Shown piece by piece: positions 12,710 to 61,475 of a stretch of 64,000 nt of DNA (positions within the stretch are counted from its first letter, which is position 1; every line of letters starts with the position of its first letter). A program made the position numbers and the translations under genes. Source of the DNA: Bryum argenteum (Eukaryota; Streptophyta; Bryopsida; Bryales; Bryaceae); the NCBI GenBank assembly GCA_037043015.1, contig CM073322.1, positions 20,736,364 to 20,800,363 of the forward strand, read 5' to 3'. The notes beneath the pieces are model-generated. The model worked only from the letters and a program-made list of their open reading frames with translations. It was not told the origin of the DNA and searched no databases.

Positions 12710-13332
12710 GGGTGATAGTCTGGTTGGGGTACCCAAAAAGGTTGTCCTATGAACAATTGCACTCTATGCTGGTGTGACAAACATATCCATTTTTAAACTG
12801 TAATACAATAAGACTTCATTAGATGTGGTTTTAGTTGTCTATACTTATAATGTATCAAGAAAAAAAATTAAGAATTAAAAAAAATATTTTGAAGTAATTT
12901 TATTTGATTTTTTAGTTGAAAAAGTAAGTCATGTCCCAATAATCTAAAATCCATTGAATCAAGCAAATGGAATATCAACCATTTTTATTTTAATATAATT
13001 TTTGAATATGACCTACATCTTCTTGTATAGAATACAAAATAATTTATTTAATAATAAAAAAATTAATTCATTGTGCACTATAATGCCTGAAAATCCCCAA
13101 ATTCAACACTTTTTCCCTCATCTATGAATGGATCCAAAAAAAATAAAAAATCTAAAAGAAAATCTATAGGCATATATACTTTGATTTCAGTGAGGTGCAT
13201 GATATTTTATTTTCTATTTTAGGGTCTTTTTACTTGATTAAAATGACTAAATTAGACAAACTTTGGAGGCTTTCAATAAAAATAACCTAATTAGTGTGTC
13301 CAAAAAGTGATACCCCAAGCTTACCATTGCCC
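12710..13332. mobile_element. 623-bp TIR element, copy 1
   Basis: The left end GGGTGATAGTCTGGTTGGGG and the reverse complement of the right end GGGCAATGGTAAGCTTGGGG form an imperfect ~24-bp inverted repeat. The body is AT-rich and non-coding. It is flanked by AACA on both sides, a possible 4-bp target duplication. Two more copies of the same length lie at 14089 and 54988. Confidence 0.8.
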
Positions 13333-13375
13333 AACAAAACGTACCAAATATGGGGGTTGTGGACGGTCCTCAAGT

Positions 13376-13510
13376 AGGTTGATGCCCAAGCAGGTTGTAG
13401 ATGATCAGCGAGCACATTGTATACGATTGGCAGATGATTGGTGAGCAAGTTGAGCTCGTTGTAGATGATCAACGAGCATGTTGTAAATGATCGGCAAGCA
13501 GGTTGGGCCG
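13376..13510. repeat. Degenerate ~22-bp tandem repeat
   Basis: Variants of GTTGTAGATGATCAGCGAGCA recur about five times (GTTGTAGATGATCAACGAGCA, GTTGTAAATGATCGGCAAGCA and others). No coding role is supported. Confidence 0.6.
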
Positions 13511-14088
13511 CACACATGAGGCCGAGGGAAAGCTCATGGAGGGCTTATCAGCCTCCCGTGAGCCTTCTCCGCTCGCAACGCGATGAGAATATTGCTAGCC
13601 CTAGGGCTCATCAACCAAGTCGGGCGGCAGGTTGCCCTAACTTGCCCAAACATCAAAAAAAGAAATGTGAATCACCATTTGTCATCACCCTTTGACTAAA
13701 CTTACCCCCACCTCTATGACCCAAACTTCCTTTACTTTTCTTCTATCTATTCCCCTTTATTTTTTACTTTCTCTCTCTTCTTCCACATCCACCATTATAT
13801 ATTCCCTTTTCACTAAATAACAACTAACATTTTAATATTATTTTTGCTTTGAGTTTGAATTTGTGTCAATCAAATGACAATTATGCCACTCGTCCTACTC
13901 ATTGCCTTATTTCAAAATCCCATCAGATATATTCAATAATCATTTTTTAAAAATTGATATCATAATTATTAATCTTATCCTTTCAACTAATTTGGAATGA
14001 ATTCAAGATTAAAACAAAAATTTAAACATAAAATTAGTACTATTGAACATTTTTAGTCATATGTCCACTATTTTCTTAGATCGGTTTA

Positions 14089-14711
14089 GGGTGATGGTCT
14101 GGTTGGGGTACCCAAAAAGGTTGTCCCATGAACAATTGCACTCTATGCTGGTGTGACAAACATATCCATTTTTAAACTGTAATACAATAAGACTACATTA
14201 GATGTGGTTTTAGTTGTCTATACTTATAATGTATCAAGAAAAAAAATTAAGAATTAAAAAAAATATTTTGAAGTAATTTTATTTGATTTTTTAGTTGAAA
14301 AAGTAAGTCATGTCCCAATAACCTAAAATCCATAGAATCAAGCAAATGGAATATCAACCATTTTTATTCAAATATAATTTTTGAATATGACCTACATCTT
14401 CTTGTATAGAATACAAAATAATTTATTTAATAATAAAAAAATTAATTCATTGTGCACTATAATGCCTGAAAATCCCCAAATTCAACACTTTTTCCCTCAT
14501 CTATGAATGGATCCAAAAAAAATAAAAAATCTAAAAGAAAATCTATAGGCATATATACTTTGATTTCAGTGAGGTGCATGATATTTTATTTTCTATTTTA
14601 GGGTCTTTTTACTTGATTAAAATGACTAAATTAGACAAACTTTGGAGGCTTTCAATAAAAATAACCTAATTAGTGTGTCCAAAAAGTGATACCCCAAGCT
14701 TACCATTGCCC
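14089..14711. mobile_element. 623-bp TIR element, copy 2
   Basis: Nearly identical to copy 1 and in the same orientation, 1.4 kb away, with the same two ends. The flanks differ (TTTA on the left, GACA on the right), so no target duplication is visible. This suggests rearrangement next to the element after insertion. Confidence 0.8.
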
Positions 14712-15641
14712 GACAACGACATCATCGACAACAACGACATTACCGATCGACAACGACACTACCCACGACAACACTCTGAAGACTCCGCGCGGCCATCTCG
14801 ACACAACAATCTGACTGGACTGAACGGCATTCAGTACCCTGAAATCGGCACTCAGCTCCACTGGAGTATGCAATCGGCAATCAGCCCGATAACCCCGATT
14901 AGGGTTTCCTGCAACAACACACCTGCATCCATCGACCGTAGCCAAACGACACCTGCAAGCGACACTCAAAACAAAAAGTAAGCGGCACTTCTGCTTACCC
15001 CGACTTCTACTTACGGAGCAAACCTCCAACTTCTGGATCGCGTCTGCAGTTTTCACCGCAGCATCGAGTTTAGAACTCCGCTTCCAAAGCGTACCTGCAC
15101 TGTCATTTGAAACCGGGAGTACTAACAACACAAAAGTCGCCAACAGCAACGTACCAACAACATTGATACCGCCGCTACTCACGTCCCCAACAACAACGCA
15201 CCAACAACGTCGATACCACCTCTACTCACGTCGCCAACAGCAACGCACCAACAACATCGACACCGCCGCTACTCACGTCGCCAACAGCAACGCACCAACA
15301 ACAGAGCGTCACCAGCCTCACTACCTGTGCAGCCACGAGAAACCTTGATCGAAGTTGAAGGCGAGAAGAACACCTTGCTGCTCCTTGTGACTGCCCGCAT
15401 TCAACTACGCTCTGTCTAGGGAGGAAAAGGTTTGGAAGGTCATAATTTGTCCTTGTTTGAAGAAAATCAGCCCCGGCACAGTAGGTAAGGTACATGTTCG
15501 TCCCTAAACACTTTTGCATTACATTACATTTATTTGGACAGTGCATTATCCTTAAAAAAACTGTTCGTGTATTTGTGTTGTTGGTACCAAGCATAGTTCT
15601 CCCTCCTTGTGTGTTAGGTATTGGCCTTAAAGTACTGAAAC
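14712..15641. other. CAACA-rich leader region before the 539-residue ORF
   Basis: The sequence changes sharply to CAACGAC/CAACAAC-rich DNA right after the TIR element. Frames here (for example 14700-15182 on the minus strand) are low-complexity shadows. The part up to 15641 could be the 5' leader of the ORF at 15642. Confidence 0.4.
15136..15303. repeat. 47-bp tandem repeat, 3.6 units
   Basis: Units start at 15136, 15183, 15230 and 15277 (partial) with consensus GTCGCCAACAGCAACGCACC + AACAACATCGATACCGCCGC + TACTCAC. Unit 2 carries several substitutions. Confidence 0.9.
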
Positions 15642-17261
15642 ATGGAACAATCTAACACCCAAAGGAACCTCATTTTTGATAGAATGGACATAGAGACACC
15701 TGTTGAGAGCCTTAAGAGAATCCACAATGAAAAGAACACCAAAGGTAAAAAGAAAAGAAGTACTAATGAGCTCAATGCAAGCCCCTACTCTTCTAACCCA
15801 GAAGTGGAGGGATTTAAATTTTGGTTGGGATTCCATGTGATGGAGTCTTTGGCCAAAGAGGAGGGCTTGGAAGAGCTTCTATGGGAGGAGCCTATAAAAG
15901 ATATGATTACAAGAGGCTTTCTTGAGAAAGAGGCAAAAGAAGCAAGATCGGCAAGAATGGCGTTTCCAAGAATCCCCCAATTGCTCTATCCAAGCACGTG
16001 GAGTGGGGGTGAAGGGCAACACTACAACATCACGCAAGTCCCCCAAGATGTCATCACCAACATAAACACCGGTTTGTCATTTGATTTTCATATTGCAATT
16101 CATTTTGACCAACCTAGAACTCCTATACTATATGATCAAATAAAATACATGGTTCTAATGAGACTCAAAGTTATGGACATTGCATTAGGGGAGGATCTCA
16201 TTGAACCCCTCAACATTGTTTGTCTTAGTATTAAGCAAGGTGGAAGGAAAGGGGTGTGGGCCGAGATCATTAAACTACACCTACTAAAACCTGAAATAGA
16301 TGGCATTGCATTGTTGAAGGGCTTAAGGCCCTTCATTCTTGTTCTTGATGAAATGCCAATGATTGGGAAAGTATGTAAAAGCTTCCATAACATCTCTACT
16401 AACTCTAATCTAAGTGTGAAGATTAAGGGTGAGTCTTTGAAGGGATTGTTGGCGCCAAGTGTTTTCAAGAAAGTCCTTTGGAGTAGCTTCAAGAGAGGCC
16501 ACATGTTGGAGATTACGGGAGTCCAAAAAGGCAAAGAGGAGAGCTTTGCCTTCTTGATGACAACACCATTACAAGCTAAGAAGATAGAAGAATTTCAAGT
16601 GACATTGGGAAGCGAGATTGTTGAGACCAAGAGAGCTACTATGGGAGAGAAGATGACGGAGGAGACAAAGGCAAAGAAGGATGCCTTGTCTCTCACACTC
16701 TCTCACCTTCCTATCCTCATGAAGGTAGAGGAGACAAAACAAGCCATTGAGAAGGTAATGGGCATCGCCAATGTTGTTTCAATATGGTTTCACAAAGAGG
16801 ATGGAACAAGGCACAATGGGAGTGCCAATGTGCAATGTTCCAACCCTATTGTCTATAGACAATTTGTGAATAAAACCCTCCAAATTGGAGGGTTTTTTGT
16901 GGAATTTGTTCCACATAGGAGAAGCTTGGAGGGGGTGGAGCCTCCAAGCTTGGAGCAAATTAAGAGTTTTGGGTTCCAAGATGTGAATGTTGCAATGGTA
17001 AACACCATTGAAACATTCAAGATGCTTGAAACTCAACCACTAACTAAGAAGGAGATTGTTAGTCTCATGGAGGAGGTTGTGGAGGAGAGCAATAAGAAGA
17101 TGAGAATCGAGACAAGGGAATTGGTGGAGGAGAAGCATGAGGAGTTGACGCACCAAATTCAATCCATTCAAGAGACCCTCATGATGACCTTATCAAGTAT
17201 TCAACACATCATAGGGAACAAATCCCCTCTTTTTATTGACAAATCAAAAAACGTGGATTGA
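15642..17261 (+). CDS. Intronless 539-residue protein, unknown, probably mobile-element-linked
   Basis: A single long frame begins at an ATG and is compositionally normal. Residues 1-55 are Lys/Asn-rich. About 60-320 form one globular region (for example ILYDQIKYMVLMRLKVMDIA and LKGLRPFILVLDEMPMIGKV). About 360-465 form a second, possibly RRM-like region with VVSIWFHKEDGTRHNGSANV, VYRQFVNKTLQIGGFFVEF and PHRRSLEGVEPP. The C-terminus (about 465-525) is an acidic/basic helical stretch, EEVVEESNKKMRIETRELVE and on, likely a coiled coil. I see no zinc knuckle, catalytic motif or transposase triad. The lack of introns in a genome whose genes have many, and its place between transposons and just upstream of a LINE on the same strand, suggest a mobile origin, for example an ORF1-type RNA-binding protein. 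It is not G-poor like the LINE, which argues against one common unit. Confidence 0.6.
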   Translation: MEQSNTQRNLIFDRMDIETPVESLKRIHNEKNTKGKKKRSTNELNASPYSSNPEVEGFKFWLGFHVMESLAKEEGLEELLWEEPIKDMITRGFLEKEAKEARSARMAFPRIPQLLYPSTWSGGEGQHYNITQVPQDVITNINTGLSFDFHIAIHFDQPRTPILYDQIKYMVLMRLKVMDIALGEDLIEPLNIVCLSIKQGGRKGVWAEIIKLHLLKPEIDGIALLKGLRPFILVLDEMPMIGKVCKSFHNISTNSNLSVKIKGESLKGLLAPSVFKKVLWSSFKRGHMLEITGVQKGKEESFAFLMTTPLQAKKIEEFQVTLGSEIVETKRATMGEKMTEETKAKKDALSLTLSHLPILMKVEETKQAIEKVMGIANVVSIWFHKEDGTRHNGSANVQCSNPIVYRQFVNKTLQIGGFFVEFVPHRRSLEGVEPPSLEQIKSFGFQDVNVAMVNTIETFKMLETQPLTKKEIVSLMEEVVEESNKKMRIETRELVEEKHEELTHQIQSIQETLMMTLSSIQHIIGNKSPLFIDKSKNVD

Positions 17262-17540
17262 AGAACAACCAAAGGGGAGTACTTTTTAACTATGTGGAAT
17301 TGAATGGAAGTAGTATATTCTGGAGTATCATTGATAGACTTTATAGATACGGTATTTCATACATATATGAGTACTTTATGCTACCTACAGTAGAGTATTT
17401 TATACGGTATACCACCGTATGTATGGCTTTCCAATACATATTTTTTCTAGTATACTTATATACTAAATACAACTCTATGTATATTTGTATGACCACATAT
17501 AAGGATACAAATACAAGTACAAAAACAAATACAAACAAGA

Positions 17541-17819
17541 CAAATACAAATACAAATACAAATACAAATACAAATACAAATACAAATACAAATACAAATA
17601 CAAATACAAATACAAATACAAATACAAATACAAATACAAATACAAATACAAATACAAATACAAATACAAATACAAATACAAATACAAATACAAATACAAA
17701 TACAAATACAAATACAAATACAAATACAAATACAAATACAAATACAAATACAAATACAAATACACATACAAATACACATACACATACACATACAAATACA
17801 CATACACATACACATACAA

Positions 17820-17856
<37 letters not shown>

Positions 17857-18166
17857 TACAAATACAAATACAAATACAAATACAAATACAAATACAAATA
17901 CAAATACAAATACAAATACAAATACAAATACAAATACAAATACAAATACAAATACAAATACAAATACAAATACAAATACAAATACAAATACAAATACAAA
18001 TACAAATACAAATACAAATACAAATACAAATACAAATACAAATACAAATACAAATACAAATACAAATACAAATACAAATACAAATACAAATACAAATACA
18101 CATACAAATACACATACACATACAAATACAAATACAAATACAAATACAAATACAAATACACAAACA
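17541..18166. repeat. (TACAAA)n hexanucleotide array with TACACA blocks
   Basis: About 104 consecutive hexamers. Most are TACAAA. TACACA variants are clustered at about 17761-17860 (alternating runs) and 18100-18125. All three plus-strand frames are open (TN, YK and IQ dipeptides), which explains the long false Thr-Asn and Val-Phe frames on either strand. Confidence 0.97.
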
Positions 18167-18635
18167 TACACATGAAAATAAAAATACATACACAATTATA
18201 AATACAAAATTTTTTGTCCTTGAACTTCTTGGGAACCCCAAGCTCATACTATGGCTACTAAGGAATCCCAAGTTTATACTTGGGCTACTTGGGGATAACA
18301 CATTAAACAAAACAACAAGAACACAAATCTACACATTACACCAAAAACAAACCTATCTCCCCCACAAACCAAACGGAGCTCGGCCTCCCGGCCTCGCCAA
18401 AACATTAATACACCAAAACACACCCTATCTCATAAATAATACAACAAAAACCAACCCAACAAAACAAGATAAATACACCAAACAAAAGGAAAATTCTAAG
18501 ATACACAAAACAAATTGGTCCCCCTCCCAAACACAATCAAAACCTAAAAATCCCAAAATACCCAATCCTAAAACAAACACCATATTACATCTTGGCAGAC
18601 CAAAATCCAAAACTCCCAAAGGCAAATTCATCCCA

Positions 18636-18689
18636 AACTATTTATTTCTCCTACTCTGCGGTGACGTCGAACCAAACCCAGGCCCCATG
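18636..18689 (+). other. 2A-like ribosome-skipping motif in the LINE
   Basis: In the frame of the endonuclease ORF the codons read NYLFLLLCGDVEPNPGP followed by Met (ATG at 18687). The core D-V-E-x-N-P-G|P is the canonical 2A/2A-like signature, and the upstream Leu-rich, Cys-Gly context matches cellular and LINE 2A-like peptides. The family makes the ribosome skip the Gly-Pro bond, releasing an upstream peptide and continuing translation from Pro. Similar motifs are known in trypanosome and animal non-LTR elements. The Leu-rich run could also act as a signal-like segment. Confidence 0.85.
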
Positions 18690-19937
18690 CCAAATATCCT
18701 ACACACCCACCCCGCCAAGCATAGACGACACAGCAACACATACTTCATTCCCAGCACAATCATATTGTATCCAGAATACAAACCCCTCGCAAAAATATTC
18801 TCCTCCACAATCCAAACCACACACCCCGACCACCCAACAAGTATAAACAAATACCCATGTCTAACACGTTACATACATAACCACCCCCAATACCCACCAC
18901 CAAATTTTCTATACGCACTAATTACCACCATTGGTCCTCTATTAACAATGTGTGAACAACATATATTATCAAACCCATCTCCTGATTGGACTACATCATT
19001 ACTCAACAAACTTTCCCGTTTACCAAACATCCCCTCCCGTCACTTAAATAATCCTCACCCCTACACTAAATTTTTAGAAACACACCAACACAATATTACA
19101 CCCTCTCGCACCATACACAAAGAATTATATAATTTTATCACAAACATAAACAACAATGTACATCTACAAACATTAATGGTTGAATTCCCATACATGCCAA
19201 AAGAACTACTAATCGAAGCCTTAAAATGTAAAACACACATTCCCGAGTACTCACACCCACCACCACTCCCGCCTACCCTCCCTCTTCAACCCCAACCCCA
19301 AATTACTACATACCAAAGCACACTTATGATTACCTGGAATGCAGCTTCACTCAATACTGCACTTCCCAACATCCACCAGCTCGCAGATAACCTTCCCCCC
19401 ATCATTACCATACAAGAAACAAAACTCACTGCAAATAAATCCACAAAACACATACAACGCATGCTACCACAATATAAATTCATCTTCAACAATACACATG
19501 CCTTCACTAGATGTATACAACAAAGATTAAGATACACACCTACTAGAGGCGGCCTTCTCACCCTAATCCACTACAAATATGCCTCCCCAGGAAATGTCAC
19601 CAAGATCCCAACACCAGCAAACATCTCACCATATGTACAAATCATACATATTGCGACCAAAACTCTCATACCATGGATTCTTATCCATCTCTACATGCCG
19701 TCCCATCCCGAAGATATAGGACTAATCCCCTCCATTCAGCAAACAATTACCACTCAAATACAAACACATCCAAATCACACCCATATTCTTTGTGGTGATT
19801 TTAACAGGGACATCGCACTCATAGGCAGACAAAATGAACATACCACAACACCACCACAAGACGAAGACATTCAATGGCGCACCTTCACCGATAGTCTCAA
19901 TCTAAAGTACATTCCTACAAATGTACCCATTCTCTAG
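18687..19937 (+). pseudogene. LINE segment: N-terminal region and APE-type endonuclease
   Basis: The ATG follows directly on the 2A-like Gly-Pro. The same frame is also open upstream to the hexanucleotide array, without another ATG. Residues ~150-190 contain LQTLMVEFPYMPKELLIEAL, which resembles a CUE-type ubiquitin-binding helix set. The EEP/APE fold starts near residue 214 with MITWNAASL. The catalytic Glu is in TIQETKL and the Asp-Asn motif is LCGDFNRDI (about 19790). A TAG at 19935-19937 interrupts the frame, probably a changed Trp codon. The domain continues in the same frame past the stop with SLIDGYYI and SDHSPV (about 20050-20065), the usual C-terminal D-H motif. All catalytic positions look kept apart from the stop. 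Confidence 0.8.
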
Positions 19938-20728
19938 ACACAAGGGGATACAACTATACTGAGATCGAGCCTTATTGACGGTTACTACATAAATTCCACC
20001 AATCACCATCTTTTCACCTCGACTACCAACCACACACAAAACCTTAACTCAGACCACTCACCAGTAAATCTTCACATACCTCAACAAACACTAATAGCCC
20101 GCCCTCCACCAATATCAATTAAAACAACCCCTCGTATTCTAAACCCCATCCCCCAAGCCAACTTAGACTCATTTAATACTGCATTCTTTGAACAAAACGC
20201 ACTCTCTATTAACAACCTTACGACTATTTTAAAACAAGAACAACTCACTCGCACTGAATGGACCACTGCATGTACACAATTAGACCTCCTCATAAACTGC
20301 ACCACAGAAACATTGCTAAAAACTTTTACCGCCCCCCCTATCCCCACTCTCACACCACAAACTAACCATCAGGGTGGATTTCTACCAAGAAAATCACAAA
20401 AAGACTGGAAGAGACACCTCTCTACATACCACTTAATTCGCAAAACAATCTACATAGCCAACAACAACGACACTTGGAGAACACACCCAATAATACAAGA
20501 AACACAACAACACACACATGCAAGCATACCACCCCCCCCCCGGACACAGATGACACTAAAAAAGATTGGCTAAACACACTAGCAGATTTAGCCAAAATCG
20601 CAAACAAAAAAGCAAGGGCCATTACCACGAAATACACCCGCCAATCCATCAAGAAGGCCATAACAAAATATCGACAACTTTATAACACTAGCCCCAAGAA
20701 AATAACAACCGTGTCTTCAAAAACCTAG
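19938..20728 (+). pseudogene. LINE segment: end of endonuclease and linker to RT
   Basis: The same frame runs on from the stop through SDHSPVNLHIPQ to RKSQKDWKRHLSTYHLIRKT, a helical linker typical between APE and RT in LINEs. At a run of ten C residues (about 20530-20540) the frame changes, and DDTKKDWLNTLADLAKIANK continues to about 20695, where a second change leads into the RT frame. Replication slippage in the C run is the simplest cause. Confidence 0.7.
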
Positions 20729-22276
20729 AGACCCCACCACTAGACTGCATTACCACTCACAACAATGAAATCCTGACTAGCCCAGACGACATAGCCCAAG
20801 AAATCTTCTTGCAACAGTCCATCACCAACCGCCCAACCATCCCAACATGCTATTATCAACCAGAACATCCCCAAAACTGCACATGCGCAGTCCACCAATA
20901 CCCCTGGCATGATTTAGATGGATTTATTCTTGAAAAGAGAGGTACTCCAGAAACTCCGTTACACACATACTAAAATCGGGAAACTTTTGACATCTGCTTA
21001 AAAAATCTCTCACAAAACAAAGCTCCCGGCCCAGATAAAATCCCTAACTCCATTCTCAAAAATATGCCTGACTCATTCCACACCCTTCTACACCTCTTCT
21101 TCTCCCAATGCTATAAACAAAAACAAATACCTGCATCTTGGAAAACCAGCCTTACTATACTTCTTTACAAGAAAGGTGACCCCTCACTTCTCCCCAACCA
21201 TAGACCCATTGCCCTCGCTAATATATACAATATACAAACTCTTTACTAGTACCCGTACATTCATTCTATCAGCATACGGCGAACGCCACCAAATCCTTCA
21301 TGACAGTCAAGAAGGCTTTCGAGCTGAAAGAAGTACCTCTAGACAAATCCAACTTCTTACGGCCACACTTGAAGATGCTAGAATCACAAACCAAGACATT
21401 TACATAATGTACATCGACTTCAAAAATGCATTTGGATCCTTAGACCATGCTAGACTACTAGCAATAATGGCTGACCTGGGCTACCCAATAGATGCTGTTG
21501 CACTAATTGGAAACATTTACTCACATTCCACCACCATATACACTGGAGAGCACTTTGGAAAAACGAAACCAATACCAACCCAACGGGGCACCATCCAAGG
21601 CGACACACTAAGCTCATATCTTTTTATCATATTCCTAGAACCCCTTTTGAGATGGCTACAACTAGGAAACCATGGTTACAAATTTGGTACATCAAAATCA
21701 ATAATTAACACTGCTGCATATGCTGATGACCTAGTTGCTCTCACTGATACCCTTCAAGCGCTACAAACACAAATGAATAAAATTGAAAAATTCAGTGATT
21801 GGACTGGACTCGAAGTAGGTACACAAAAATGTGCAGTTACCGGCTGCCCAAACAAATCCAAACTCACACCCACCGCCTTCAAAACCCTTCTTCAAACACA
21901 AAACATCAACTACAAAAATGAACCATTACCAACACTACACCAAAATGAAGCCTACCCCTACCTCGGTATTCAAATGGTACCAACTCTCAAGTGGAAACTC
22001 CAAACACACATAACCACCAAAAAACTTACTGAACAATGTCAAAAACTCTCTAACTGCCCTGCCACAATGAAACAAAAAATCAATATGGTGGATACAGTCA
22101 TACGCGCAGGCGTTGCATATAGCTTCTATGCAGTACCCTACTCACTACCAATGATCAAAAAACTAGACAAGAAAATCACCAGCATCCAAAAAACAATATG
22201 TGGGCTTCCTAAATGTACGGCAAATGTTATTGCACAATTACCACATGAAGACTTTGGCCTTGAAGCTTTCTCTTAA
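20701..22276 (+). pseudogene. LINE segment: reverse transcriptase
   Basis: Classical LINE RT blocks appear in order: NKAPGPDKIPNSIL, then LTILLYKKGDPSLLPNHRPI (frame change near 21230), EGFRAERSTSRQIQLL, MYIDFKNAFGSLDHARL (catalytic Asp in block A), RGTIQGDTLSSYLF, and AAYADDLVAL with the YADD catalytic pair at about 21712-21741, then YLGIQMVPTLKWKL. A TAA at 20971-20973 and the frame change disable this copy. The block order and the APGPDxI block fix it as a non-LTR, not an LTR, polymerase. Confidence 0.9.
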
Positions 22277-23320
22277 AAATGCTTACCTCAAATGCATTGG
22301 AGACCAACTTACAAATGCACTAAATGACAAAGGTAAACTTGGCCCAATCTACCAAGGTCTCATTCAACACATACTAGCAAAATATGGTGGATCCCAAGAA
22401 ATCCCCCGAATAAAATACAACGATTGCATACATTCCCCAATCACAAGAACAATCTTCCTACTTAAAGAAGCCGGTGGACTACACCTCAAATGCACACTTG
22501 ACAACTTCCAACTCCAAGCCACCGAATTAGAAACGCGATGGGCGACCTGCATCAATTCTCCTACCCCACCTAAATCCCAAAGTCTCCCTCAAATTATTAC
22601 ATAAACTACTACTTCTCAAAATAACCAAAATAAGCCACCTCACACTCCCAAATGGAACCACTCTCATGTCACCTATAGATTTCAAAATATACTATAAAAA
22701 TCCCAGTAAATTAGAACGCAGCGCTCTCAATCTTGCTCAACAACTATTTTGCCAAAAAATATGCACCCCCGAATGTTCACAACCGTGCAACTCACACTCA
22801 CCATCCCATCTTCTATACAACGAATACATAACACATGACCACGAAATATCCCCACCTACTCCTCCACTTCCAACACATTTAACCTTCCCACCACCTACAC
22901 CAACAATACCCCCGCCCAAACAAATCATCAATAACCCGATTGACTTCCCCATACACCACATATCCGCACACAAAATAGACACCAAAAAGACAAATACAAA
23001 ATCACGCACTCCACAAACAAATACATGTGCCACTGAAATAAACAATCAACTTACATACCACACTTGGTTATCCCCAAAGAACTATTCCCACTCAACCATC
23101 CAACCGTCATACAAAACAACCTTAACCTTCTAACCGAATACTACACACAACAAAAACACACATTATATAAACACATCATCAATACTAACTTCACAACACC
23201 ACAATCAAGAGACACCCGATTCATCCCACCCCAACAAATATACCCCTTACGCAAATCCATCTACAAGATCGCAACCCCGACAAAGACATCCTCACAAACT
23301 CCCCTACAATACAAATCCTA
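22265..23320 (+). pseudogene. LINE segment: thumb/connector region, frameshifted
   Basis: Three frame pieces follow one another: SLKNAYLKCIGDQLTNAL to about 22560, then VSLKLLHKLLLLKITKISHL to about 23062, then ELFPLNHPTVIQNNLNLLTE to about 23275. They contain helical segments, a Cys pair (CTPECSQPC) and a Pro-rich stretch. I recognise no domain. The length of this connector between RT and RNase H is greater than usual for LINEs. Confidence 0.6.
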
Positions 23321-25696
23321 AATGAAACAGCACATTTATTCGATAAAAATGGCCACTTTCTCCTTACCATCCCTACATCAAGACTCAAATGGTTATGGAA
23401 ACAATACCACACATACCTTAACACTAACCACGGTCTAACTCCCCAAACCCAACCCTTTGAAACAGAAATCATCCTACTATATAAACGATACCACCACACT
23501 CTCTCAGAACGCAATCCCAAAACAACAGACCACCACACGCTCCCCACAACCATTATAGACACTCTCATAACATCATTCCGCATAACACACACGTATTTCT
23601 CCTCCCCAGTAACATGCCCCTTACAGATCACCAAATACTACTTTACATTCCCACGTGACAAGATATTTGGCTCCAATGGCCCTGCCTTTCATTATAAATG
23701 GGAAGGAATTGGTTATGCCCATCCACACAACGACGAAACTGCGCAACAAAGTATTCATTGGGCCAGGTTAGCCGCACAACATAACCCCAATGCTATAACC
23801 ATTGTGGTCATGCCAGACAAGCAATGGTTCCACAATCCAACCCCATACTCAACTGAGTTTCCAGATACACACGTTTTAGCACACTTTGCTGCTGACACAT
23901 TAACATACGAACAACCCACCGTCCCCACTGACCACAAAAAACCCCGCACCGAACCAAACACAATCCAAATCCTTTGCATCCACCACAAGCAACACCATCT
24001 CACCACCACAGCAGACACACATAATCTCACAACCACTCTTAGAAATCTATCTATCACCCAGTTCCACCTTCAAGAAATTCCCCCCACACCTGAAAACACC
24101 AAAGTCAACAAAAACAAAAATTGGACCAAACTCCTATATCCCCCAACACATACACCCAACCTCTCAAGCGCACCCCCACTCCCACAATACACCACACATC
24201 TTCCTATCAAATTCCCTCAAGAATATAGCTATTATACAGATGGATCCTTCATACCACCACAAAAAACAACAGCGGGCTATATGCTCCCAGAAACCGCCGG
24301 TTATGGCATTTATAACCCAACAAAACGAGAAATACAAATATCAAAAAGACTACCGGGCTTACAAACCATATTTAGGGCGGAACTTATGGCCATATACAAA
24401 ACACTCAAAATCCTCACAACTAGGTACATAGACGAACCCGCATACATATTTACAGATTGCATAAACTGCTTGTACGTTTTACAAACACACCTAACACATC
24501 CTACTCTACAAAACAACCACCCCGATCTAAATACTCTCATCGCCATTACAAATATGCTGAAAATACGTACACAACCCACCATGTTCCACAAAGTAAGAGC
24601 TCATGTTAACATATCCGGAAATGAAAAAGCAGATAAGCTAGCAAAAGCAGGAAACGAAAAAAACTATAAATTTGCCCGAAAAAACCACGAATTTGCACAC
24701 ATCACCCCTTTCTATTACCAAAAAGATATATGGCCTGGACCGCACCACAGACCAGATAAGGGACCAATTAGAAACCTAGCTACATACCTTACCAAATACG
24801 ACCGTGAAAACAACCTCACAATTCTAGCACAAAACTTTCCTAACATAAACAAATGGACCTCCAATCTCGATATACATGCAAAATCTTCAAATGCCTTCTG
24901 GAAAAATCCAAAAATTACAGACTCCCAAATAACTAGCATACTAAAATTCCGCACAGGACAATACATGGGTAACGCACGAAAACAACTATTCTTTGGACAT
25001 ATACGATTCCCAACAAAAACATGTCCTATCTGCAACTCCACAGACGTAGACACATGGCTACACGTCTTACTTAAATGCCGACACCCAAACATCCACGCAC
25101 TTAGAGTTACCAGGCACAATCAGGCAGTTAAAACCATTAAACAACTCATCATGTCCAACGCCAAGTCTAGATGTTACACACTTATAAATGCCGGAAGGCA
25201 CCTCAGCGCACCCCCAGATAACACGGTACCCAGTTGGCTCCTCCCTTACACTTGCGACACACGTAGATGTCACTGCAATGCAAGATTTCGGCCTGACTTA
25301 CTTTGTGTAATCGGCCTCCCACACCAAGGCACACCTCCACAACACCCCAACAACAGTATTGCCATTCAATATATTGAATTCACATACTGTAACGACAGAT
25401 TTCCACTAGAAACCATCACAAATAAAACCAATAAATACCAACCATTACTCGACTCAATAGCTGCCCGTGACTGGAAAGTCAACCCCCTCATAGTCATTAC
25501 TTCAGGTGCTAGAGGCACTACTCACACACCATCAATGACCTCATTGGAAACTTCATTCAAACTAACCAAAAAACAAATCAAAAACGCATTCAAAACAATT
25601 AACATGATAGCCATACAACACGCAGCATTAATCCTCTTATACAAACGCAAACTAGAAAACCACCAAACCCTCCCCACCAATCTCGAACCACCATGA
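23270..25696 (+). CDS. LINE 3' ORF: Dam-like segment, RNase H, CCHC finger, RLE nuclease
   Basis: This ~808-codon frame is intact. (1) At about 23640-23840 FPRDKIFGSNG, YAHPHNDETAQQ and ITIVVMPDKQWFHN resemble the Dam-type N6-adenine methylase layout, with HPHN in place of the catalytic NPPY. (2) RNase H at 24220-24660 has all four acids: YYTDGS, FRAELMAIY, FTDCINCL and NEKADKLAK. (3) A CX2CX9HX4C finger, CPICNSTDVDTWLHVLLKC, lies at about 25020. (4) A restriction-like endonuclease at 25290-25540 has FRPDLLCVIG, IQYIEFTYCNDRF, K..KYQPLL and LIVITSGARG, the order seen in R2/Dualen RLE domains (CCHC, PD, acid, K..KY). It has no start of its own and was the 3' part of the long ORF. Confidence 0.8.
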   Translation, partial: RNPDKDILTNSPTIQILNETAHLFDKNGHFLLTIPTSRLKWLWKQYHTYLNTNHGLTPQTQPFETEIILLYKRYHHTLSERNPKTTDHHTLPTTIIDTLITSFRITHTYFSSPVTCPLQITKYYFTFPRDKIFGSNGPAFHYKWEGIGYAHPHNDETAQQSIHWARLAAQHNPNAITIVVMPDKQWFHNPTPYSTEFPDTHVLAHFAADTLTYEQPTVPTDHKKPRTEPNTIQILCIHHKQHHLTTTADTHNLTTTLRNLSITQFHLQEIPPTPENTKVNKNKNWTKLLYPPTHTPNLSSAPPLPQYTTHLPIKFPQEYSYYTDGSFIPPQKTTAGYMLPETAGYGIYNPTKREIQISKRLPGLQTIFRAELMAIYKTLKILTTRYIDEPAYIFTDCINCLYVLQTHLTHPTLQNNHPDLNTLIAITNMLKIRTQPTMFHKVRAHVNISGNEKADKLAKAGNEKNYKFARKNHEFAHITPFYYQKDIWPGPHHRPDKGPIRNLATYLTKYDRENNLTILAQNFPNINKWTSNLDIHAKSSNAFWKNPKITDSQITSILKFRTGQYMGNARKQLFFGHIRFPTKTCPICNSTDVDTWLHVLLKCRHPNIHALRVTRHNQAVKTIKQLIMSNAKSRCYTLINAGRHLSAPPDNTVPSWLLPYTCDTRRCHCNARFRPDLLCVIGLPHQGTPPQHPNNSIAIQYIEFTYCNDRFPLETITNKTNKYQPLLDSIAARDWKVNPLIVITSGARGTTHTPSMTSLETSFKLTKKQIKNAFKTINMIAIQHAALILLYKRKLENHQTLPTNLEPP

Positions 25697-25799
25697 CAAA
25701 CAAAAAAGGGGGGTAGTGGTACAAACCACTGTTGTTAACAGCACACTGTTTCAGTCTCAGCTTCTCGGGTAGGGGCCGGGTGGTTGATTTATTTTTCCT

Positions 25800-25925
25800 G
25801 CCATATACTCAGAGACAGCCCCAAGCCATGCGAACTGCTCAAACGAGCCCGACAAGGTTCGAACTCGGACCAGCACGATTACAAATGTCCTACACCTCAA
25901 CCACCCTAGGACTCCATGGCCTGGT
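25800..25925 (-). mobile_element. tRNA-derived SINE (or tRNA pseudogene) head
   Basis: On the minus strand the sequence GGTGGTTGAGGTGTAGGACA fits an RNA polymerase III A box (TGGTTGAGGTGT). About 35 bases later GAGTTCGAACC fits a B box (GTTCGAACC is a perfect GWTCGANNC). The anticodon-arm region is not a clean tRNA, and a ~60-base unrelated tail follows. This is the layout of a tRNA-derived SINE inserted antisense in or beside the LINE 3' end. Confidence 0.55.
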
Positions 25926-25950
25926 GACCTTGAACCCATCCAAATCCCAA

Positions 25951-26880
25951 TTAACCCCTAAAAATCCAGGAAAACCGATTCGGTTTTCTGAGATTTCGGG
26001 CAGCTCATTTTAAGCATTTAAATTGATATTTTTGCCTAAGATTTTTATTGGGTGCTCCCCATACAGTAATGTGTATGTGGTAAAATTTTCAAAGTCAAAT
26101 TTTAATTTTATAACCTTCACCTAGAAATTTTAGGTTTCAAGTCCTAAACGGGCAGTTTAAAATATTTTTTTTTAATATTTTTTTTTAGAAATATGTTCAT
26201 TACCAAATTACTATTCAAATTCCAAAGTATCCGAAGTCAAAAAGTTTACCAATTCTACAAGGGCAGCCTCCAAAACTTTCAAAAACAATCTTCACAATTT
26301 CTAGTAATTTTACAATTTTTTCTTTCAAAAATTGCCAAAATTCGAGATTTTGGATTTTTTCCAAGATTTTTTTTTTCAAAATTCACATTATCATAAATGC
26401 ACCTTCACCGTCGAGATTTTTCTCAAACTAAATATATCATACGTAGTGCTTGTTTTACTATATGGTTGTTTTTAGACCTTCTTTCATAAAATATTTTACG
26501 TTAAGGTCAAAAAGTGGAATTGGTCTCTAAAATTTTGCATGAGCATACCCAACTTGATTACATACATGAAAAAAAATGAGGGAAAAATATTTGGAATAAC
26601 AATCATCAAGTTGCCCTTGGCACCATTTAGACAATGCCTCTCACGCAGCGGCAAAAAAAAGTGTTGGTCAAACTTTGATTGTTATAATCTCACAAATGAC
26701 AAACATCCAACGGTTGAAATTTTGACCAGTCCTTTGTATACAAGTTAGGTACAAGATCTTACGGTTCAAAGTCTAAAACCGGAAAAAAAGTTTCTCCATT
26801 TCCCCATTTCCCAACGAAGGTGAAAAATGGCAGTTTTTGGTTCTGGAGGTCGAGGAAACCCCTGGATTTTTAGGGGTTAA
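25951..26880. mobile_element. TTAACCCC-ended MITE family, long member
   Basis: The ends TTAACCCCTAAAAATCCAGG and its inverse CCTGGATTTTTAGGGGTTAA are a perfect 20-bp inverted repeat around ~890 bp of AT-rich DNA. An internal block (about 26670-26735, TGATTGTTATAATCTCACAA) is shared in inverted form with the members at 27427 and 38654. A TTA target duplication would fit Tourist/PIF-Harbinger elements. No transposase is encoded. Confidence 0.75.
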
Positions 26881-27426
26881 AACATTCATTTGCCAAACAC
26901 TCGCAACCTAAATAGTTCTATCTTTGCTACTTTAGTTTAGTCTGGTCTCGGTTACTTTGTGTAGTCAGTTGCGTATGTGTAGTTTAGTGTCTATTCCCGT
27001 AAGGGGTGAGTAGTTTTGTTCTTTTACCTCTTTGTCCTGTGGCCATTGAGGTAAAGACATTACGAACAGACGCTGTATTCACGCCAATCTCTTATTGGAG
27101 ATTGGAGTTCTTATATATATATTTTAAAAATTTAGTATACTTTATGACAGTATTATAAGGTATCTCAATTTTTACTCAATGTTAAAATATTACTCGTATA
27201 AGTTAATTTTATTTCTATTCCTATTCTACCTTATAGTAGGCATTTATGTGTTGATGTGAAGGTAATTGTTTAGGTGAGTATTTATTTTAACGTATCCAAA
27301 GTTCACTACTTGCAAGGGGAAAGGGATTTTATATTGAAACTATATTGCTACGTACTGAAACTATCAAATTATATATCTGAGTGTTTTTTAATAGACTTTA
27401 TTCGATATGACAAGAACTTCAGCTTC
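26881..27426. other. Intergenic DNA with a small hairpin
   Basis: AT-rich, no gene. A perfect stem-loop CCAATCTC-TTATTG-GAGATTGG lies at 27084-27105, followed by TATATATATA. It could be the end of an older retroelement. Confidence 0.4.
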
Positions 27427-59600: not shown

Positions 59601-61475
59601 TCCTGTAGACCAGGCTGTTCTTACAGCATCAGGAGACATGAAAATCAAGATTTGGTCTCTTACTGATGGCTCGTGCTTGAAAACCTTCGAAGGCCATACT
59701 GCAAGTGTATTGAAATGTTCTTTTATTACTCGAGGAACACAGCTGATTTCAGCAGGTAATCGCTTGAGCTTTATTGTGGACGTTCTCTTGTCGAAGGTTT
59801 CATGTCTGAAAGGCCTCATTGTGACTGTAAACTGTCGTCATGTGATTGTCACTTCTTTATGGTGGTAATCGAACATATATGGGCTAGGATGTTGACTTTC
59901 AGATTGTAAAACTCGAAATTGGCAAGTTTGCAATAGGAAGGCTAAGTTGTTTTGACTTCAATTTGCAGGAGCTGATGGTCTGGTGAAGCTCTGGACCATC
60001 AAGACCAATGAATGTGTGAACACTTTTGACCATCATGAGGACAAGGTGCGCTTCCGTCCTTGAACGTGGAGTATAGTGACTTCTTGTGTTGTTATTTTAA
60101 CACTGCTGTTTCTTTCGAATTTGAGTCGGCTGGTTATGAACTATCGTTTGGAATCGGCAGTCGCTTATATAGCAAATTTCTCTTCAGATCTGGGCCCTAG
60201 CCGTGAATTCGGAGACAGAAAAGGTGGCAACTGGTGGCGGCGATTCAGTGGTTAATATGTGGACGGATTGCACGCTTGACGACGAAGAAGAAGCTATACG
60301 TCAAGAGGTGAGGAGTAGTCATCGTTGTCGGTTACATTCATTGTCTTTACTCTCGTCAATATCAGCTTCTCAAACTTTCACTCACATGCAAGTTTTTCTA
60401 TCCTCTGAGATACTGAAATACTGCAAGTTTGTTATCTACCGAGACTGCATGTTCTTGCAGGTCATCAAGCTAAGAATCTCGTCTTTTGTAAGGTCTAATA
60501 TCTGTGATGTGTTGTACCAGGAAGAGGAGGCTTTGAAAGACCAAGACCTATCGAATGCTCTGGCAGACACAGACTGGGTCAAAGCAGTACAATTAGCTTT
60601 CGAACTTCGACGTCCTTTCAGGGTTCTTAAAGTTTTCACAGATCTATTAGGGTACTTTCTCCCACATTCTGTTAGCATCGTTTTTATCTCCTCTCATGGG
60701 TGCTCAGAATACAGGATTTTAACTTGACATGGTATATTGCAGCAGACTAGACTACAGGTTCTTACATGATATGATACAATTGCAGGAGTAACGACGCCAA
60801 CGTGCAAATCCGACAGATATTTCAATCACTTGACAAGGACTACTGGAAGCTTTTGTTGGAGTACATACGCGACTGGAATGCAAAGCCTAAATCCTGTCAT
60901 GTAGCACAGCGTGTTCTGAACGAATTTTTCTCTGTGGTTCCTGCGTCAAAAATCGTGGAGGTTCGTGCCCTTCATTGTCAAGTCTTCAACCTCTTTTATT
61001 TCATCAGAAGAAAGAGTCTATAGCTGACCCTTTGGCAACTACCATGCAGATACCTCAAGTACGAGAGCTCATGGAAGGAATAGCCCCGTACACGAAGCGA
61101 CATGCAAGCAGAATCGATAGGTTGTCTCGCAGCATTTTTCTGCTGGATTACACATTGGCTCGTATGAATGTGCTATTGCCCGTGAGCGAGCCAGACGCAG
61201 CACTTCCACACCAGGCAACCAGTTGGCCAACTATTGGAGCTCTGGATGGAGCAGATACAGATATGGCAGATGCAAATGACAAAAGTGCTGCTGCTGACAA
61301 TAATGGTGGCGAAGAGGCCGTCGAGCCCGTCTCTCCCGAAAAGGTCGTGGAAGAAATGGAGGAGGAAGAGCCTGTGGTACCCAAGGAAGGGACGAAGAAG
61401 AGGAAGAAGAGTTTAGGTGGGAAGAAGAGGAGAAAGTCGGGGTTGGACATGAGAACTGTCTCTCCTGTTAGGTAG
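56697..61475 (+). CDS. UTP13: UTP13/TORMOZ WD40 protein of the small-subunit processome, 14 exons
   Basis: Exons are 56697-56996, 57119-57301, 57390-57539, 57681-57889, 58099-58384, 58627-58761, 58875-58993, 59176-59338, 59509-59755, 59969-60045, 60188-60307, 60521-60651, 60786-60960 and 61050-61475. They give 2721 nt (906 residues), close to Arabidopsis TOZ. Around a dozen WD repeats span residues ~20-650 ([68 protein letters not shown]), the expected double propeller. Residues ~660-820 form the Utp13 C-terminal domain ([35 protein letters not shown]). An acidic stretch and the basic tail [15 protein letters not shown] look like a nucleolar signal. In the family it binds U3 snoRNP and is needed for 18S rRNA processing. 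Junction positions near 59176 and 59509 may be off by a base. Confidence 0.93.

What the first reader, a model, noticed from the sequence alone, without database searches (positions are those of the whole stretch)
18687..25696. Dual-endonuclease LINE (APE plus restriction-like nuclease) with RNase H: a Dualen/RandI-like element in a land-plant genome
One element encodes APE motifs (TIQETKL, LCGDFNRD, SDHSPV), LINE RT (YADD), RNase H (four acids), a CCHC finger and a C-terminal RLE (RPD, IEF, K..KY). Only the Dualen/RandI group is known to carry both nucleases, described from green algae. Joined to a 2A-like motif, this is an unusual combination.
Basis: partly seen in the sequence, partly recalled or inferred. 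Interest (0 to 1): 0.88.

Follow-up and report, generated by a model that had tools for sequence, protein, structure and literature searches.

The report
Plant retrotransposon with two DNA cutters
A land-plant genome carries many copies of a large jumping gene that appears to encode two different kinds of DNA-cutting enzyme plus a domain related to an mRNA-cap-modifying enzyme, a combination close to an odd group described mainly from green algae.

Summary
Window 18687-25693 encodes APE, LINE RT, RNase H, a CCHC finger and RLE-type motifs, preceded by a 2A/StopGo motif. This copy is broken by frameshifts, but its 259-Mb genome holds at least 150 scored relatives. Long-frame copies of one subfamily and copies of a second carry the same domain order, so it is one element. 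It is larger than reported: about 14711-27122, with an intact ORF1 upstream and a covarying 3' hairpin followed by short-repeat tails.

New here: between RT and RNase H lies a PCIF1-family (cap m6Am methyltransferase) domain. It is as constrained as RNase H and RLE (median dN/dS about 0.10), but the catalytic NPPF is replaced by A-H-(P/T)-(H/Y) in 54 of 54 copies read. The 660 nt before 2A stay open in the ORF2 frame (1 stop against 80 and 86 in the other frames, 8 copies) although poorly conserved between subfamilies.

The RT lies on the R2 side, apart from the genome's own L1s. It works like Dualen/RandI, but clade membership could not be tested (no Dualen sequence at hand) and the RLE fold was not confirmed. 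Best filing: new variant of the dual-endonuclease LINE kind, in a probable land plant.

The parts
14711..27122 (+). whole element (copy with broken ORF2); 5' end approximate, 3' end at the short-repeat tail
   Evidence: two other copies start matching at 14711 (only 40 of 820 candidates scored, so an extension upstream is not excluded); most copies stop at 27122, a few at 27085-27140
14711..15641 (+). 5' untranslated region with 47-bp tandem repeats at 15136-15303
15642..17258 (+). ORF1, 539 aa, intact, no Pfam or PDB match of note
   Evidence: DNA of its 3' third recurs upstream of the ORF2 start in 18 of 25 loci, window included (hand count)
17493..18656 (+). variable stretch open in the ORF2 frame without any in-frame ATG in this copy; holds the (ATACAA)n array 17505-18208
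18657..18686 (+). 2A/StopGo core CGDVEPNPGP, directly followed by ATG
   Evidence: present in 8 of 10 long copies examined, window included, with synonymous codon changes
18687..19328 (+). N-terminal domain of ORF2, no family match
19329..20066 (+). APE-type endonuclease (Pfam match 19329-19811; SDHSPV motif at 20046, after a frame change)
21016..21970 (+). reverse transcriptase (NKAPGPD, QGD, YADD; frame change inside)
23420..23818 (+). PCIF1-like (cap m6Am methyltransferase family) domain; the NPPF position reads AHPHN at 23717-23731
24221..24652 (+). RNase H
25022..25078 (+). CCHC finger
25283..25693 (+). restriction-like endonuclease motifs (RPD, E, K..KY) and C-terminus
25955..26876 (+). 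nested 922-bp repeat with 20-nt perfect terminal inverted repeats and TTAA (not part of the element)
27084..27105 (+). conserved 3'-terminal hairpin, followed by AGTTCTTAT and an AT-rich tail

Best explanation
It is a high-copy autonomous LINE of the dual-endonuclease kind in a probable land plant, active recently enough to leave long-frame copies. Likely mechanism: the RNA encodes ORF1 and, after a 2A skip site, a protein of about 2336 aa with APE, RT, a PCIF1-derived domain, RNase H, CCHC finger and RLE. The protein recognises the 3' hairpin of its RNA, nicks target DNA, primes reverse transcription from the nick through a short-repeat tail, and RNase H removes the template; one nuclease cuts the first strand and the other may cut the second. 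Shown: domain order, conservation, covariation of the 3' hairpin, repeat tails, one 5'-truncated copy with an 11-13-nt target duplication. Inferred: that the RLE motifs form an active nuclease, the division of labour between the nucleases, hairpin recognition, 2A activity, and that the PCIF1-like domain, lacking NPPF, binds the capped 5' end of the RNA rather than methylating it.
For: Same architecture in group A (L031, L032, L033 with frames of 2334 aa or more) and group B (L036 with a 2157-aa frame, L038 in pieces). Copies: 951 first-look candidates, 54 scored; PF12237 over Pfam's cut-off in 150 of 150 scored of 209 candidates. RLE residues in 34 copies: D 33, E 33, K746 33 (R in 1), K749 34, Y 34, RHN 34; E-to-K spacing 16 against 17 between Asp1009 and Lys1026 of R2Bm (passage of PMC10499050). 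Median dN/dS: PCIF1-like .102, RNase H .102, CCHC+RLE .111; RT .075 and APE .106 (from the 14 and 10 of 45 pairs that were not saturated). RT: vertebrate-type R2 chains 112.3-119.6 bits against 68.1-70.1 for L1; tree joins it with R2 against human and own-genome L1 at 98/96. 3' hairpin: 9 pairs, 5 with changes on both sides, 9 of 144 cells broken. Target duplication in L037.
Against: No structural proof of the RLE: no PDB match at E 10 by profile; single-sequence models failed. D-to-E spacing is 27, against 13 between Asp996 and Asp1009 of R2Bm, so an insertion must be assumed. R2Bm itself scores no better than L1 (63.4-67.4 bits). APE passes Pfam's cut-off in two of the four long proteins and falls short of it in the other two with one or both models. 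No Dualen sequence for a tree; the RT tree has long branches and no outgroup. No target duplication beyond chance for the window copy.
Confidence: 0.77

Rival explanations
1. An independent dual-endonuclease lineage: an R2/R4-like RLE element that gained APE, RNase H and a PCIF1 domain separately from Dualen/RandI.
For: RT is closer to vertebrate-type R2 than to L1; a PCIF1-like domain is not in my recollection of the Dualen description; Dualen RT could not be compared.
Against: The joint presence of APE, RT, RNase H and RLE is the Dualen hallmark (APE plus RLE: passage of PMC4640811); short-repeat 3' tails as in RandI (Table 3 of PMC3747384).
Confidence: 0.17
2. The C-terminal region is not a nuclease (degenerate or another zinc-binding domain), so the element is an APE LINE with RNase H and a CCHC tail.
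For: No sequence match to any PDB chain at E 10; no Pfam match over the region at E 5; longer D-to-E spacing than R2Bm.
Against: CCHC, RHN, RPD, E and K..KY in R2-like order, nearly invariant in 34 copies with median dN/dS .111; RT on the side of an RLE element.
Confidence: 0.12
3. A chance nest of two or more elements.
For: The window copy is broken and does contain a nested 922-bp repeat.
Against: The same order in single open frames of 2334, 2613 and 2941 aa at other loci and in a second subfamily.
Confidence: 0.01
4. A plant L1 with decorations.
For: The genome has plant-type L1s (113 zf-RVT matches).
Against: RT 25-27% identical to L1s, QGD instead of QGC, separated at 98/96; no zf-RVT match in the element.
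Confidence: 0.02

Closest known systems
Dualen/RandI non-LTR retrotransposons (Kojima and Fujiwara 2005, not held, recalled; described in PMC4640811 as encoding both APE and RLE, passage read)
   Same: APE, RT, RNase H and RLE motifs in one element; RT outside L1; 3' tails of short repeats rather than poly(A)
   Different: probable land-plant host; a PCIF1-like domain; a 2A site and a variable translated stretch before ORF2; no recognisable cysteine protease (a Dualen feature that I only recall)
R2 (RLE LINE)
   Same: CCHC then RHN, RPD, E, K; QGD in RT; best-scoring solved RTs are R2
   Different: has APE and RNase H; RT only 29-30% identical; the 3' flanks printed look unrelated rather than one rDNA site
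Plant L1
   Same: APE plus RT; RNase H is known from plant L1 (passage of PMC4640811)
   Different: RT clade, RLE motifs, 3' tail, PCIF1-like domain
PCIF1/CAPAM cap m6Am methyltransferase
   Same: Pfam PF12237 above its cut-off; PDB PCIF1 chains 6irx E 0.0021 and 6irv E 0.0071
   Different: NPPF, needed for catalysis (APPA mutant inactive, passage of PMC8452764), is A-H-(P/T)-(H/Y) in 54 of 54 copies read
2A/StopGo sequences of APE-type LINEs (Odon 2013; only its title seen in a reference list)
   Same: fits (D/G/C/N)(V/I)ExNPGP (abstract of PMC12846837)
   Different: in a dual-endonuclease element of a probable plant, with ATG directly behind NPGP

Membership tests
Dualen/RandI | APE domain upstream of RT | tested here: met
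   (over the cut-off in the window copy, P0001 and P0004; P0002 and P0003 just under it)
Dualen/RandI | RLE downstream of RT and RNase H | tested here: inconclusive
   motifs conserved in 34 copies; fold not confirmed
Dualen/RandI | RNase H | tested here: met
Dualen/RandI | RT monophyletic with Dualen RTs | not testable with these tools
   no Dualen sequence held; scans of viral and genome contigs found no relative
Dualen/RandI | RT between RLE-only and APE clades | tested here: inconclusive
   13-row tree without outgroup: with R2, apart from L1
Dualen/RandI | cysteine protease (recalled from the 2005 abstract) | tested here: inconclusive
   no Pfam match at E 5 in four long-frame proteins, but two large regions match no family
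Dualen/RandI | 3' tail of short repeats | tested here: met
   mostly (ATCT)n or (AT)n tails; RandI (ATT)n, (CTATTT)n in Table 3 of PMC3747384
Plant L1 | RT inside the L1 clade, zf-RVT C-terminus | tested here: not met
R2 | no APE, rDNA target | tested here: not met
   APE present; unrelated 3' flanks (by eye)
PCIF1 methyltransferase | PF12237 match | tested here: met
PCIF1 methyltransferase | catalytic NPPF | tested here: not met
   0 of 34 and 0 of 20
2A/StopGo | (D/G/C/N)(V/I)ExNPGP in frame | tested here: met
   8 of 10 long copies; the other two are L033 and the 5'-truncated L037
2A/StopGo | ribosome skipping | not testable with these tools
   needs a translation assay

The most novel reading that the evidence does not exclude
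A LINE captured a cap m6Am methyltransferase (PCIF1) domain, lost its catalytic NPPF, and keeps it under strong purifying selection as an RNA 5'-end (cap) reader inside a dual-endonuclease protein. That would let the enzyme hold both ends of its own RNA, while a fast-evolving but always-open stretch and a 2A site couple ORF1-side translation to ORF2.
Probability: 0.35. Interest if true: 0.82.

Novelty: new variant of a known kind. Interest (0 to 1): 0.72.

Why it matters
The place of Dualen in the RT tree is the ground for the view that APE elements arose by replacing the RLE (passage of PMC4640811). A high-copy land-plant family with long-frame copies makes it testable which nuclease does what. 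A conserved PCIF1-derived domain in a LINE was not in the lists (8 of 8 papers listed; 20 of 33; 20 of 30). It suggests a new way to capture the 5' end of LINE RNA. Natural 2A use in a plant element would also be notable: PMC12846837 (abstract and one passage) found no evidence of it in plant viruses.

Tried and rejected
Nested-fragment reading: rejected by single frames of 2334-2941 aa elsewhere. Plant L1: rejected by RT. Known RNA families such as ribozymes: no Rfam match at gathering in seven loci. Relatives in viral and in bacterial or archaeal contigs: none confirmed. Read-through from ORF1 into ORF2: the window's relative frame is shared by 6 of 16 other copies, near chance. An intron joining ORF1 to the open stretch: no good donor in phase. 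Target duplication of the window copy: its 10-nt match is within chance. The genome search with the ORF1 protein was tried ten times and never answered, so ORF1 was not tested for selection. Papers not held: the 2005 Dualen paper, a 2016 adenine-methylation review, Odon 2013.

Rows left out: one search used the window, L002-L030 and L036-L039; L031-L035 are longer fetches of L008, L028, L005, L025 and L006 and were not counted again. The first hairpin run had 13 of 16 distinct sequences; one search repeats it with all 16 of those found. Seven further loci (L035, L002, L006, L010, L020, L021, and L030, which was added by hand) did not fit the search expression.
Full report
What was checked. ORF2 of this copy changes frame several times, so it is a dead copy.

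One element. The window lies at C2:20736364-20800363 of a 258.8-Mb genome in 25 contigs. The 835-aa frame at the end of ORF2 gave 951 first-look candidates, of which 54 were scored (56 match rows at 72-100% identity, the window itself included). Several copies keep long frames: 2941 aa in L031, 2613 in L032, 2334 in L033. A second subfamily (L036 with a 2157-aa frame from the APE on, L038 in pieces; 61-62% protein identity to L031) has the same order of domains. Four long-frame proteins give the same families: RT 4.4e-27 to 1.1e-28, RNase H 8.3e-12 to 5.5e-14, PCIF1_WW 5.4e-11 to 3.3e-13, and APE, which passes Pfam's cut-off in two of the four and falls just under it in the other two. A chance nest is therefore excluded.

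Extent. Most copies stop matching at window 27122 (a few at 27085-27140, and L006/L035 lose the match at 25803), just after a hairpin and at a short-repeat tail, mostly (ATCT)n or (AT)n, with different DNA behind. The hairpin covaries: 9 pairs, 5 with at least one change on both sides, and 9 of 144 cells broken, in 16 distinct sequences. Inside the 3' region the window copy carries a 922-bp insert with 20-nt perfect inverted ends and TTAA; the insert has 4311 first-look candidates, and the 40 scored are 97-100% identical, the window included, plus two short pieces at 74 and 78%. Upstream, DNA of the last part of the 540-codon frame at 15639-17261 recurs 0.9-2.1 kb (start to start) before the ORF2-start match on the same strand: by hand count 18 of the 25 loci, the window included, have such a match; the other seven may pair with ORF2 copies outside the 40 scored. 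Two other copies match back to 14711, where the window has the end of a 623-bp repeat that occurs twice (about 12710-13332 and 14089-14711). Only 40 of 820 and 40 of 1052 candidates were scored there, so a stretch of the element upstream of the repeat pair is not excluded. As it stands the element is about 14711-27122, some 11.5 kb without the insert.

The PCIF1-like domain. In the whole genome 150 of 150 scored candidates (209 first-look) pass Pfam's cut-off. A profile of four copies finds solved PCIF1 chains first (6irx 0.0021, 6irv 0.0071); phmmer with the window copy gave 6irx at 0.0043. Median dN/dS between copies (34 copies, pairs with dS 0.1-1.0): PCIF1-like 0.102, RNase H 0.102, CCHC+RLE 0.111, the linker between PCIF1-like and RNase H 0.205. 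The domain is as constrained as the enzymes around it. Yet NPPF, which PCIF1 needs (APPA mutant inactive; passage of PMC8452764), is absent at its place in 34 of 34 and 20 of 20 further copies; A-H is invariant in all 54. Strings like NPPF did occur somewhere in the six frames of 14 of these 20 stretches, none at the aligned motif. So the fold is probably kept and the known chemistry probably lost. Cap or RNA 5'-end binding is my inference.

RLE. In 34 copies the residues are nearly invariant: D 33, E 33, first K 33 (R in one), second K 34, R, H and N of RHN 34 each, C612 33, C615, H625 and C630 34. R2Bm uses Asp996, Asp1009 and Lys1026, the lysine on a helix (passage of PMC10499050); here the first spacing is 27 against 13 and the second 16 against 17. 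Against this: no PDB chain matches the region at E 10, no Pfam family at E 5, and the AlphaFold model from one sequence is worthless. I rate the RLE likely, not proven.

RT. In PDB, three R2 chains score 112.3-119.6 bits, human L1 chains 68.1-70.1, and R2Bm only 63.4-67.4. A 13-row tree joins the dual elements with two R2 against human L1 and three L1 of the same genome at 98/96, with long branches and a midpoint root. The element has QGD as R2, the L1s QGC.

2A and the stretch before it. The motif D(I/V)ExNPGP is present in 8 of 10 long copies, the window included, with synonymous differences between copies, and ATG follows NPGP in all 8; L033 lacks it and L037 is truncated. In the 660 nt upstream, the ORF2 frame has 1 stop in total over 8 copies; the other frames have 80 and 86, and base shuffles gave no open frame in 2000 tries per copy (the window's stretch includes part of its microsatellite). 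Between subfamilies most matches begin only about 50-150 nt before NPGP, with a few scattered 70-85% blocks further up, while close relatives share much more (L036 with L038; copies of the window's own subfamily). Two of the 8 copies have no in-frame ATG in 270 and 398 open codons. Unsaturated pairs give dN/dS about 0.28 for the 37 codons or so before the motif (7 pairs). So this stretch looks translated but is loosely constrained; the (ATACAA)n array of the window copy, with a unit of six, fits that. How ribosomes reach it is unknown: the window's ORF1-ORF2 frame relation holds in 6 of 16 other copies, and no good in-phase splice donor was seen.

Integration. L037 is truncated at its 5' end just before the APE domain and has ATGACACTCTATG at both junctions; the first AT may belong to the tail, so the duplication is 11-13 nt, as expected from target-primed reverse transcription. 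Of the nine copies looked at this is the only one with such a match; for most of the others the 5' junction may lie outside the fetched DNA, and the window's 10-nt match is within chance. Flanks of copies look unrelated, so no strict target site is visible; this was looked at, not measured.

Host. 28 exon-wise matches to the NAC domain and 113 plant-L1-type zf-RVT matches point to a land plant. About 15 NAC genes (my estimate from exon pairs) and 11 large contigs would suit a moss, but that is a guess.

Literature. Passages read: PMC4640811 (Dualen encodes both APE and RLE), PMC4438587 (Dualen/RandI listed for green algae only, 2015), PMC8226300 (Dualen in core Reinhardtinia), PMC12747079 (LINE/Dualen labels in cryptophytes), PMC3747384 (RandI tails), PMC10499050, PMC8452764, PMC12846837, PMC4981915. 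Searches for Dualen or RandI and for PCIF1 with retrotransposons or transposons showed no land-plant Dualen and no PCIF1-bearing LINE in their lists; searches list only part of what they found, and the library holds open-licence papers only. The content of the 2005 Dualen paper, including its cysteine protease, is recalled.

Verdict. What raises interest is what it did not see: a constrained PCIF1-derived domain without the catalytic motif, and a translated but loosely constrained stretch before 2A.

Noticed in passing
25955-26876: 922-bp repeat with TTAACCCCTAAAAATCCAGG inverted ends and TTAA target, 4311 first-look candidates and 97-100% identity in the 40 scored: looks like a very recent piggyBac-like MITE burst.
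   Followed up: partly
12710-14711: Two 623-bp direct repeats (TG...CA ends) around about 756 bp with no frame of 150 aa: looks like a small LTR or TRIM element. The repeat has 820-1052 first-look candidates, those scored 97-100% identical; no matching 5-bp target duplication was seen.
   Followed up: partly
15470-15620: Seen by eye: the 5' region of the element has a near-consensus splice donor (AGTAG/GTAAGG, about 15485) and a possible acceptor before ORF1; a 5'-UTR intron in a LINE would be odd.
   Followed up: no
17505-18208: A 700-bp (ATACAA)n array lies in the stretch that is open in the ORF2 frame; the unit of six keeps the frame.
   Followed up: partly
60173-61475: Host gene fragments match the Utp13 WD40-associated domain.
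   Followed up: no
G000 genome: Five-unit TTTAGGG runs give 834 forward and 119 reverse exact matches, overlapping ones counted; the places listed on C1-C3 include many far inside contigs, so there are interstitial telomere-like tracts.
   Followed up: no
L046-L048: Three plant-type L1 copies with frames of about 1400 aa in the same genome, cut by the ends of the fetched stretches.
   Followed up: partly
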